From Clostridiaceae bacterium DTU059 (GTDB lineage Bacteria; Bacillota; Clostridia; DSM-8532): DNA of 48,974 nucleotides. A model generated the notes under the pieces. The model ran no database searches and had not been told where the DNA came from. It saw only the letters and a program-made list of their open reading frames with translations. The translations under genes were made by a program, and so were the position numbers. Positions 920 through 31,125 of the stretch are shown in pieces. Positions within the stretch are counted from its first letter, which is position 1. Each line of letters begins with the position of its first letter. The DNA lies in the NCBI GenBank assembly GCA_001512555.1, contig LFSK01000211.1:1-48974 (forward strand), given 5' to 3'.

Positions 920-1663
920 ATGAGAATCAGAAAATTCGCAGCAATTGCTGCACTATTTTTGCTTTTTATGATGGCAGGTTGCACATCAAAGACGGCACCT
1001 GGCCAGGAAGACAAGACCCAAAATCCCACCGGGACACCTGAGCCTACAGAAACGGGCCAACTGCAGTATATTGCCGGATACCAACTCAGGCAGCCCGAGG
1101 CGGGGGATACCATTGCCATACTAAAAACCAGCATGGGGGATATCAAGATACTGCTATTTCCCAATGAAGCCCCCAAAACAGTGGAAAATTTCGTGACCCA
1201 TGCCAAGAACGGATATTACGATAATCTGACCTTCCATAGAGTCATTGACGACTTTATTATTCAGGGCGGGGATCCAAAGGGTGACGGAACAGGAGGAGAG
1301 AGCATATGGGGAGAGCCCTTTGAGGATGAGTTCTCCTTAAACATGCTTCACTACAGAGGAGCCCTAAGTATGGCCAATTCAGGAGAGGACACAAACGGAA
1401 GCCAATTCTTCATAGTCCAGAGAAAACAGATTACAGATGGTGAAGTCGATGCACTCAGGGCTGCTGGTTATCCCGAAGATCTGATATCTCTGTACAAGGA
1501 ACATGGCGGAACACCTGGTCTGAATTTTCTGCATAGCGTTTTCGGACAGGTCTACAAGGGTATGGATGTGGTGGACAGGATTGCTGCTGTGGAGACTGAT
1601 GCGGAGGATAAGCCTTTAAAAAATGTAATCATTCAAACCATCGAAATACAGGAAGTCCAGTAG
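920..1663 (+). CDS. Cyclophilin-type peptidyl-prolyl cis-trans isomerase, lipoprotein
   Basis: Lipobox-like LLFMMAGC; cyclophilin motifs FHRVIDDFIIQGGDPKGDGTGG and GSQFFIV. Confidence 0.93.
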   Translation: MRIRKFAAIAALFLLFMMAGCTSKTAPGQEDKTQNPTGTPEPTETGQLQYIAGYQLRQPEAGDTIAILKTSMGDIKILLFPNEAPKTVENFVTHAKNGYYDNLTFHRVIDDFIIQGGDPKGDGTGGESIWGEPFEDEFSLNMLHYRGALSMANSGEDTNGSQFFIVQRKQITDGEVDALRAAGYPEDLISLYKEHGGTPGLNFLHSVFGQVYKGMDVVDRIAAVETDAEDKPLKNVIIQTIEIQEVQ

Positions 1664-2508: not shown

Positions 2509-3045
2509 CTATTCCTTGCCCTTGCCCAGCAGTACACCGATCACCTGTGGATAGATTTCCTTGGCCTGTTCCTTCCAGTTTTTGCAGATGTGTCTGGCAT
2601 CCTCCCTTGAGCCCACCGACAGACGAATATCGATGAGTGGCTTGAAATTCTCAATGATCTTGCATTTCACCTCGTACTCATTCTCGTTTTCAAGGGTATA
2701 TTCAGCAATGACCGAGGCCTCATACCTGATTGCGGGCCGTATAATTTCAACGATTTCCCTGATCCTTGCCTTTATACCTGCGGGAAGAATTCCTTCAAAC
2801 ATCTCAAGCATTTTTTCGCCCTGCTGGGTGATGGTATAATAATCGATATTATCACGGGTTTCACTGTTCACAAGCTTGTCGCTGATCAGCTCATGCAAAC
2901 CCTGCTGCAGCAAAAAGTAATTCATGAAGCGGTTTTCCAGCATGATTCGGGTAAGCTGCATATTGCTTACAGGTATATTAATAAACTTGATGAAATATAG
3001 TAACAATACCTTGTTTTCCGCTTTTTCAAAGCTCTCGTAATCCAT
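2509..3045 (-). CDS. DUF4364 family protein
   Basis: Overall resemblance to the clostridial DUF4364 winged-helix-like family (ENKVLLLYFIKFINIPVSNMQLTRIMLEN). Confidence 0.75.
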   Translation of the reverse strand: MDYESFEKAENKVLLLYFIKFINIPVSNMQLTRIMLENRFMNYFLLQQGLHELISDKLVNSETRDNIDYYTITQQGEKMLEMFEGILPAGIKARIREIVEIIRPAIRYEASVIAEYTLENENEYEVKCKIIENFKPLIDIRLSVGSREDARHICKNWKEQAKEIYPQVIGVLLGKGKE

Positions 3046-3212: not shown

Positions 3213-3240
3213 TTGAATAATCAGGAAAAAGTAGTATATT
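3213..3240 (+). promoter_or_regulatory. Putative sigmaA promoter for small ORF 3365-3469
   Basis: TTGAAT (3213-3218), 16-bp spacer, TATATT (3235-3240). Confidence 0.5.
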
Positions 3241-3263
3241 TATTTTAGTACGGATTACTTAAC

Positions 3264-3337
3264 ATCTGCTGGCCACCCTCGGTTATCCGAAATAACCGCC
3301 TAAAGCGGCTGAAATATGGTAAGGGGGATGAGCAGAT
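3264..3337 (+). ncRNA. Putative structured leader RNA (class not recognised)
   Basis: Perfect 7-bp closing stem ATCTGCT (3264-3270)/AGCAGAT (3331-3337) encloses the perfect hairpin CGGTTAT/ATAACCG (3280-3286/3292-3298) and a short GCC/GGC hairpin. Confidence 0.5.
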
Positions 3338-3364
3338 TACCTGACAATAATCAGGGGGATGCGT

Positions 3365-3469
3365 ATGCTTGATTTTTTCATAGAGCTAATTGCTGATATC
3401 GCTGACGCTTTTCTTGATTTCTGGATTAATAAAGTAGTGGCAAGGTTCAAGAAAAATAAAAATAAGTAA
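3365..3469 (+). CDS. 34-aa amphipathic small protein MLDFFIELIADIADAFLDFWINKVVARFKKNKNK
   Basis: ATG with GGGGG 7 nt upstream; acidic residues at 3,7,11,14,18 on one helical face; Lys-rich C-terminus. Shorter than the ORF-track cutoff. Confidence 0.65.
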   Translation: MLDFFIELIADIADAFLDFWINKVVARFKKNKNK

Positions 3470-3530: not shown

Positions 3531-3559
3531 TTGTCACCTGGGATGGTGTATTATATAAT
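3531..3559 (+). promoter_or_regulatory. SigmaA promoter upstream of aconitase
   Basis: TTGTCA (3531-3536), 17-bp spacer, TATAAT (3554-3559). Confidence 0.65.
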
Positions 3560-3715: not shown

Positions 3716-5635
3716 ATGGCAGGAACCATTACAGAAAAAATTCTATCCAGGCATATCCTGGAGGGAGAACCCGTTGCAGGGCAGGAAGTGGCCTTGAAAA
3801 TTGACAATACCCTCACACAGGATGCCACGGGAACCATGGCCTATCTCCAGTTTGAGGCCATCGGCATTGACCGCGTAAAAACTCAATTCAGTGTCAGTTT
3901 CGTGGATCACAACACATTGCAGACCGATTTCAGAAATGCGGACGATCATCAATACCTGCAGAGCGTTGCCAAAAGGTATGGACTCTATTTTTCCAGACCT
4001 GGTAACGGAATCTGTCATCAAATATTTTTAGAACGCTTCGCACGGCCGGGCAACACCCTGATAGGCTCAGACAGCCATACTCCCACTGCGGGAGGTATGG
4101 GATGCTTCGCTATGGGTGCAGGTGGCCTGGATGTTGCATGCGCCATGGCGGGAGCTCCTTTCAGAATCAAGTATCCCAAGATTGTGGGGATAAAACTGAC
4201 CGGGCGTCTCAACGACTGGGTATCTGCCAAGGATGTTATACTGGAAGTACTCAGACGTGTGGATGTAAAGGGTAATGTGGGCAAGGTTTTTGAATACTTT
4301 GGAGAGGGAGTCAAGACACTGGGGGTTCCCGATCGGGCGACCATCACAAATATGGGAACAGAGACCGGCTGTACCACCAGTATTTTCCCCAGCGATGAGA
4401 TGACCAGAGAATTTCTGAAGGCTCAGGGTCGTGAGGCTGATTGGCAGCTTCTTGTTCCCGATGAGAATGCTACCTACGATGAGATCATAGAGATCAATCT
4501 GTCTGAGGTTGAGCCCATGGTGGCGCTCCCCCATAGTCCCGGAAATGTCAGAAGGGTTCGTGAGGTTGGGCCCATCAAAGTGGACCAGGTTGCCATCGGC
4601 TCCTGCACCAACTCATCCCTGAGAGATCTGATGATGGTTGCTGCTATACTTGAAGGGCGCACCGTATCAGAGGATCTTCACCTCACCATCAGTCCCGGTT
4701 CAAGACAGGTAGTGGAGCATCTGGCTTCCAGCGGCGGCTATACCAGCATGGTTCGTGCCGGCGCCAGGATTATGGAGAATGCCTGCGGCGCCTGTATCGG
4801 AATGGGCTGTGCACCGCGTTCCGAAGGTGTTTCGGTAAGAACCTTCAATCGTAATTTTGAAGGGCGCAGTGGAACAAAGGATGCCAAGGTGTATCTTGTA
4901 AGCCCGGAAACCGCGGCTGCAACTGCTATTAACGGATATCTGACCGATCCGAGAGATCTGGGAGAGGCTCCCAAATTTGAGATGCCCAAAAAGTTCTTTG
5001 TAAACGATAATATGATCATAAAGCCCCTGCCTGAGGAAGAAGCTCAGAAGATTGAAATCAAAAGAGGGCCTAATATAAAGCCCCTTCCAAGCTTCGATCC
5101 TCTCGGAGATACATTGACCGGAAAGGTTCTGATCAAGGTGGGTGACAATATTACCACCGACCATATCATGCCGGCCGGTGCAAAGATCCTGCCTCTGCGC
5201 AGCAATATCCCGGAAATCTCAAAGCATGTCTTTGAGGCTGTTGATCCGTCCTTCTACGAGAAGGCCAGGTCTTCAAAGGGCGGTTTCATTATAGGCGCAG
5301 AAAACTATGGCCAGGGTTCAAGCCGTGAGCATGCGGCACTGGCACCCAAGTACCTTGGAGTCAAAGCTGTTGTTGTCAAGTCCTTTGCCAGGATCCATCT
5401 GGCCAATCTCATCAACTTTGGCATTGTCCCCCTGACCTTTAAAAATCCCGGGGATTATGACAGAATTTCCGAGGGTGATGAACTGGAAATAGCCATTGGT
5501 GATCTTACCGGGGAATGCTCACTGACCAACAAAACCACGGGAGAGACCTTCATGCTGGAGCATACCCTTTCCAGGCTGGACGCAGAGATACTCAAAACAG
5601 GCGGGAAGCTTCCCTGGATTAAAAAGCAAATCTAA
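3716..5635 (+). CDS. Aconitate hydratase
   Basis: Aconitase motifs [47 protein letters not shown], and swivel domain [22 protein letters not shown]. Confidence 0.96.
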
Positions 5636-18315: not shown

Positions 18316-18474
18316 AAGGTTGAGGGAGAGATGCTGCCCGTCAGCACACCGAAGGAGTTACACTCTCAGGTAAACAGACCTTGACCTGACGGAACTCTGG
18401 AGAGACCGATTTGGCGCCGAAGGGGCAAGTTCTGATATGGAACGTATCTCTCAGGCAAAAGGACAGAGTGAGAC
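18316..18474 (+). ncRNA. Tandem glycine riboswitch (gcvT element)
   Basis: Aptamer 1: GGGAGAG...ACACCGAAGGAG..ACTCTCAGGTAAACAGACC. Aptamer 2: CTGGAGAGACCG...GGCGCCGAAGGGGCAAG...TCTCTCAGGCAAAAGGACAGAG. Strong match to the known consensus; boundaries approximate. Confidence 0.95.
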
Positions 18475-18643
18475 ATGAGTTAATATGGCCGGATCATGTA
18501 AAAGCCATACTATTGCAGCTTATATCTGCAAGTCAAACGCTTGTTTGCCTTTTTCCTTTTTGTAAGCAGGGAACGATTTCCGTAAAGGACTCCTTGCTCT
18601 GGTGCTCGTCCGGTATAATTTATTTTAAGAAGGTGGTATTATC

Positions 18644-31020: not shown

Positions 31021-31125
31021 TAACAGAGCAGGTATTATGCGTCAAGTGTCAGAGAATGGGAGTAGAGTCTCTGAACGAAAAACCATGATCCCATGGTTTG
31101 CGATATAATACCGCATCCGCTGTTA
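31021..31125 (+). ncRNA. Tetrahydrofolate (THF) riboswitch
   Basis: TAACAG/CTGTTA P1; GGTATTAT/ATAATACC P2; conserved GCGTCAAGTGT..GAGAATGGGAGTAG..ACGAA core; AACCATG/CATGGTT P4; 3' GCATCCGCTGTT, as in the known THF aptamer consensus. Confidence 0.88.

What the first reader, a model, noticed from the sequence alone, without database searches (positions are those of the whole stretch)
3213..3469. 34-aa amphipathic micro-protein behind an unassigned structured leader
Seen directly: a short ORF (MLDFFIELIADIADAFLDFWINKVVARFKKNKNK) missed by the ORF track. Acidic residues at 3, 7, 11, 14 and 18 fall on one helical face, the opposite face is strongly hydrophobic, and the tail is Lys-rich. It has a plausible promoter and SD. 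Inference: a membrane-surface-binding peptide, comparable in type to modulin-like or SpoVM/CmpA-class small proteins or a type I toxin. No specific family is claimed.
Basis: partly seen in the sequence, partly recalled or inferred. Interest (0 to 1): 0.7.

Follow-up and report, generated by a model that had tools for sequence, protein, structure and literature searches.

The report
Unnamed acidic-stripe amphipathic micropeptide family
The window holds a real gene for a 34-residue helical peptide, one of an unnamed, patchily scattered family of tiny, probably membrane-acting proteins in Clostridia, whose function is untested.

Summary
The micro-ORF is real (window 3365-3469, +). It has a Shine-Dalgarno sequence, a weak promoter and protein-coding conservation. 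Relatives at 50-63% identity lie in Thermoclostridium caenicola (same locus), in other Clostridia and in Acetatifactor; a wider Lachnospiraceae set (36-68%) follows. In 11 aligned members positions 3, 7, 11, 14, 18 and 22 are always polar, mostly Asp/Glu; every other position from 2 to 21 is hydrophobic or small; Trp20 is invariant and a basic tail follows. Synonymous change exceeds replacement change (pooled pS 0.57, pN 0.16). AlphaFold gives one helix. The gene is patchy: two congeners have the DUF4364-aconitase spacer without it; elsewhere it sits beside unrelated genes, often just downstream of another gene. No Pfam, NCBIfam, PHROGs, PADLOC, PDB, phage, plasmid or viral-contig relative was found. 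The 'structured leader' fails: it is not conserved except about 25 nt at the SD, and it folds only modestly better than shuffles. Best reading: a membrane-active helix of a new, horizontally spreading micropeptide family, TisB-like in design. Type I toxin membership is unproven: no antisense promoter was found, and many copies look operonic. Modulin and SpoVM membership is not supported.

The parts
3365..3469 (+). 34-codon micro-ORF (stop included), MLDFFIELIADIADAFLDFWINKVVARFKKNKNK
   Evidence: homologues; pS>pN; AF2 single helix 2-32, pLDDT 85.7
3213..3240 (+). sigma-70-like promoter TTGAAT-16-TATATT (9/12)
   Evidence: promoter at the aligned place in T. caenicola, TTAAAA-17-TATAAT
3247..3364 (+). 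5' leader of about 118 nt with a G+C-rich multi-branched fold; not conserved
   Evidence: z about -2; different in T. caenicola; no convincing relative in 32 genomes; no Rfam family
3340..3359 (+). small hairpin CCTGA-6 nt-TCAGG whose 3' arm overlaps the SD GGGGGA (3354-3359); this segment and the bases up to ATG are shared with T. caenicola
2509..3045 (-). divergently transcribed neighbour, DUF4364 (PF14277, winged-helix-like)
   Evidence: synteny
3531..3559 (+). promoter of the downstream aconitase-like gene, TTGTCA-17-TATAAT, present in congeners with and without the micro-ORF
3716..5635 (+). aconitate hydratase-like gene downstream; its spacer to DUF4364 lacks the micro-ORF in G002 and G003
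   Evidence: named from sequence knowledge; not profiled

Best explanation
It is a genuine protein-coding microgene, one member of an undescribed family of 31-50-residue peptides scattered through Clostridia. Each peptide is a single alpha-helix of about 30 residues. One narrow face carries acids (positions 3, 7, 11, 14, 18, 22), the rest of the helix is hydrophobic, and a basic patch follows (23, 27, 30 and the tail). Shown: conserved reading frame, purifying selection, the acid stripe, the predicted helix, patchy presence and changing neighbours. Inferred: the helix inserts into or lies on the inner face of the cytoplasmic membrane, the basic tail holding to anionic lipid in the cytoplasm, and the acid stripes pair with basic patches of neighbouring copies (D3-K30, E7-R27, D11-K23 fit an antiparallel pair). 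At raised levels this would lower the membrane potential or reshape the membrane, like small membrane-active peptides such as TisB. The gene travels horizontally as a small unit and is expressed from its own promoter (as here) or from the operon in which it lands.
For: Homology and frame. Acid stripe, invariant W20 and no acid elsewhere in positions 2-25. pS>pN. Helix. Moment and hydrophobicity (H 0.5-0.6, muH 0.4-0.5). Presence or absence at one locus. Patchy presence. The micro-ORF of G026 is far less diverged from the window's at synonymous sites (0.33) than DUF4364 (0.86) or VatD (0.80) of the same pair, which suggests transfer. TisB comparison (29 aa, amphipathic, charged face, C-terminal lysines needed): PMC11449926.
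Against: Membrane action is inferred from composition only. Several copies lie 12-30 nt behind another gene with a strong SD, where steady expression of a potent toxin would be hard to bear. The acid stripe is unlike the cationic faces of most lytic peptides. Synonymous-site evidence for transfer rests on about 16 sites. Oligomer geometry was not modelled.
Confidence: 0.5

Rival explanations
1. A benign small membrane protein that binds and tunes a membrane enzyme or transporter, or marks membrane shape, as SpoVM-like peptides do.
For: Operon-tail positions and strong SDs suggest steady, tolerated expression. A strictly conserved face and W20 suggest a specific partner.
Against: No constant neighbour: DUF4364/acn, CAT, GyrI-like, NUDIX, GNAT, HD, SDR, DUF3881. 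Absent from most relatives, so it serves no core process.
Confidence: 0.3
2. A classical type I toxin whose mRNA is silenced by an antisense RNA and by its own leader.
For: Size, hydrophobic helix and Lys-rich C-terminus fit the clostridial type I toxin description (PMC6563280). The SD touches a hairpin here and in T. caenicola. Patchy and mobile.
Against: No minus-strand promoter-like site downstream of the ORF in the window or T. caenicola. Promoter-like sites in three other loci are about as frequent as in shuffles. Leader not conserved. Many copies look operonic. None found in phages or plasmids.
Confidence: 0.2
3. A secreted surfactant or leaderless bacteriocin (modulin-like).
For: Amphipathic helix with basic tail and no signal peptide; one of 13 members touches PSM-delta models at E=0.44.
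Against: That score is not significant. No dedicated exporter or immunity gene recurs next to it. The acid face is not typical of cationic bacteriocins.
Confidence: 0.12
4. A chance ORF or a regulatory upstream peptide without protein function.
For: Such ORFs are common by chance (29 with an SD-like string).
Against: Homologues across families, pS>pN, stripe kept in all 11 aligned members; different downstream genes.
Confidence: 0.02

Closest known systems
TisB (E. coli type I toxin, 29 aa)
   Same: Tiny, amphipathic, hydrophobic helix with a charged stripe and C-terminal lysines (PMC11449926)
   Different: TisB carries mixed charges (two Asp, three Lys); here the helix face is almost all acidic over 20 residues. 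No antisense RNA is evident, and sequence homology to TisB was not shown
Clostridial (C. difficile) type I toxins
   Same: 30-59 aa, hydrophobic N-terminal part, Lys-rich C-terminus (PMC6563280)
   Different: Those lie mostly in prophages with overlapping antisense RNAs; none seen here, and no phage link
Phenol-soluble modulins (PSM-delta, Pfam PF19693 / NCBIfam NF033392)
   Same: Short amphipathic helix with a basic end
   Different: E=0.44 in one member of 13, none for the window peptide
SpoVM / CmpA small sporulation proteins
   Same: Only small size and (for SpoVM, from general knowledge) amphipathic membrane binding
   Different: No model match; absent from most related genomes, so not a conserved sporulation gene

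Membership tests
Type I toxin-antitoxin toxin | small hydrophobic peptide under 60 aa with charged C-terminus | tested here: met
   34 aa, H=0.52 over residues 2-22, six basic residues from 23 on
Type I toxin-antitoxin toxin | overlapping antisense RNA gene | tested here: inconclusive
   no minus-strand promoter-like site downstream in the window or T. caenicola; a consensus scan cannot exclude one
Type I toxin-antitoxin toxin | toxic on overexpression, neutralised by the RNA | not testable with these tools
   needs experiment
Phenol-soluble modulins | match to the PSM family models | tested here: not met
   none for the window peptide; best E=0.44 in one of 13 members
SpoVM / CmpA | match to curated Pfam or NCBIfam models | tested here: not met
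   no match of any family up to E=10
SpoVM / CmpA | conserved across related spore formers | tested here: not met
   4 confident carriers, the window's genome included, of 32 genomes in the family; 10 of 397 at E<=0.01 in the Acetatifactor family sample
Phage holin or phage gene | relatives in phages or viral contigs | tested here: not met
   TIGR01673 holin E=0.059 in one member only
The micropeptide family described here | polar (mostly acidic) residues at 3, 7, 11, 14, 18, 22; W20; basic 27 and 30 | tested here: met
   defined here, so not an independent test
Known structured leader or riboswitch | Rfam match | tested here: not met

The most novel reading that the evidence does not exclude
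A new class of horizontally spreading, single-gene membrane peptide defined by an acid-only stripe on a membrane-length helix, which settles behind unrelated genes and acts on the membrane without a dedicated antitoxin or exporter.
Probability: 0.25. Interest if true: 0.65.

Novelty: new variant of a known kind. Interest (0 to 1): 0.45.

Why it matters
Small proteins under 50 residues are mostly unannotated (only 6.1% of small-protein families got a conserved domain in a global catalogue, PMC11364881). This family gives a clear conserved pattern, many natural variants and an occupied-versus-empty locus within one genus, which makes its function directly testable.

Tried and rejected
Leader as a riboswitch or Rfam RNA: no match and no convincing relative. 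Phage, plasmid or viral origin: no relatives. A constant partner gene: none; a flavin reductase lies downstream in both L024 and L093, and a 147-aa gene of unknown function in both L088 and L084, but nothing general. Weak hits in larger proteins (L060-L065, L071) and L028 were looked at and rejected as chance. L029 (43 aa, E=0.007) is a possible distant member, not counted. Insertion boundaries at the VatD-CAT locus of G026 could not be drawn because flanks are unalignable in relatives. The exact peptide strings occur in no held paper.

Full report
Observation. GGGGGA (3354-3359) precedes ATG, and a weak sigma-70-like promoter lies at 3213-3240. It stands between divergent DUF4364 (2509-3045, -) and an aconitase-like gene (3716-5635, +) that has its own strong promoter at 3531-3559. 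On the sequence alone it would be one of 29 ATG ORFs of 25-50 codons with an SD-like string in the window, so the case rests on conservation.

Conservation. A search of 99 relatives found full-length homologues in G004, G006, G026 and G052 (E=5e-10 to 9e-7). A scan of GTDB genomes named these records (Thermoclostridium caenicola, Clostridiales DTU070 and two Clostridiaceae MAGs) and added an Acetatifactor MAG. With a profile, 10 of 397 genomes of the Acetatifactor family matched at E<=0.01, and one relative of a carrier has two copies (G1196). The peptides are 31-50 aa. Synonymous change exceeds replacement change in every comparison listed; pooled pS 0.57 against pN 0.16 over four pairs, Fisher p=6.6e-11. 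These pairs share some ancestry, so the p-value is indicative.

Pattern. In 11 aligned members positions 3, 7, 11, 14, 18 and 22 are always polar and mostly Asp/Glu (11, 8, 10, 11, 9 and 6 of 11). No acid occurs at any other position from 2 to 25, W20 is invariant, and 27 and 30 are always basic. On a helical wheel the acids of the window peptide span 80 degrees, 100 with position 22. AlphaFold2 with 13 sequences gives one helix, residues 2-32, mean pLDDT 85.7. Hydrophobicity and moment lie between surface-seeking and membrane-spanning helices, so orientation is open.

Leader. The 118-nt leader folds slightly better than shuffles (z=-1.9 to -2.0). In T. caenicola the locus is the same but the leader is shorter, different, and folds no better than shuffles (z=+0.3). 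Only the segment ACCTGACAAnAAnnnGGGGGA to the start codon is shared, with a short hairpin touching the SD. No convincing relative of the leader was found in 32 genomes and no Rfam family matches. One other relative (L023, G026) does fold well around its SD (z=-3.5), with a different sequence. The leader should not be part of the claim.

Gain, loss and movement. From the DUF4364 start to aconitase the spacer is 673 and 609 nt in G000 and G004, which carry the gene, but 354 and 280 nt in G002 and G003, which lack it. G002 and G003 are sisters (97/93 support), so one event explains the genus. The same spacer in the neighbouring genus also lacks it where it was read out (G005, G027). Elsewhere the gene lies beside VatD and CAT, a GyrI-like gene, a ferritin-like gene, NUDIX, GNAT, HD, SDR or DUF3881 genes. 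The window and G026 copies differ at 33% of synonymous sites, against 86% for DUF4364 and 80% for VatD of the same two genomes, which suggests horizontal transfer; the number of sites is small. No copy was found among phages, plasmids or viral contigs, so the vehicle is unknown.

Mechanism. Shown: a conserved coding frame, the stripe, the predicted helix and patchy, changing location. Inferred: action at the cytoplasmic membrane. The nearest design is TisB (29 aa, amphipathic, C-terminal lysines required; PMC11449926) and, more loosely, the clostridial type I toxins (PMC6563280). Membership in a type I system is not claimed: no antisense promoter was seen and many copies look like the last gene of an operon. 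A benign, partner-binding membrane peptide is the main rival. Modulin, SpoVM/CmpA and holin families were tested by profile and not met.

Verdict. It is a new family within a known kind, of moderate interest.

Noticed in passing
window 18387-18476: Glycine riboswitch aptamer (RF00504, 61.7 bits).
   Followed up: no
window 31022-31124: THF riboswitch aptamer (RF01831, 67.4 bits).
   Followed up: no
L085 (G1189 C4), match at 1501-1566, minus strand: A longer open frame (157 aa) begins MSDFLTELFAGAAELFVDFLVDHK, resembling the micropeptide, followed by a hydrophobic stretch; possibly a fused or ancestral form (E=0.001).
   Followed up: partly
L029 around 1498-1631: Possible distant member of 43-44 residues (MLIVDLLADIAEVIIDYFCNSLMDKVVEKFTKK...) with a four-residue, one-turn insertion, E=0.007.
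   Followed up: partly
L031 spacer between DUF4364 and aconitase: G002 carries TGTCATTGCGAGC...-type sequence, resembling a dispersed palindromic repeat, where the micro-ORF stands in G000.
   Followed up: no
L024 and L093: A flavin reductase-rubredoxin gene lies downstream of the micro-ORF in both, the only enzyme of known type shared between two neighbourhoods outside Thermoclostridium.
   Followed up: no
L089 1-130: Tandem repeat of about 45 nt (GCGATACGGTATACCCGGAGGGTGAACCTTGTGAAACGCCGAATG) just upstream of a family member.
   Followed up: no
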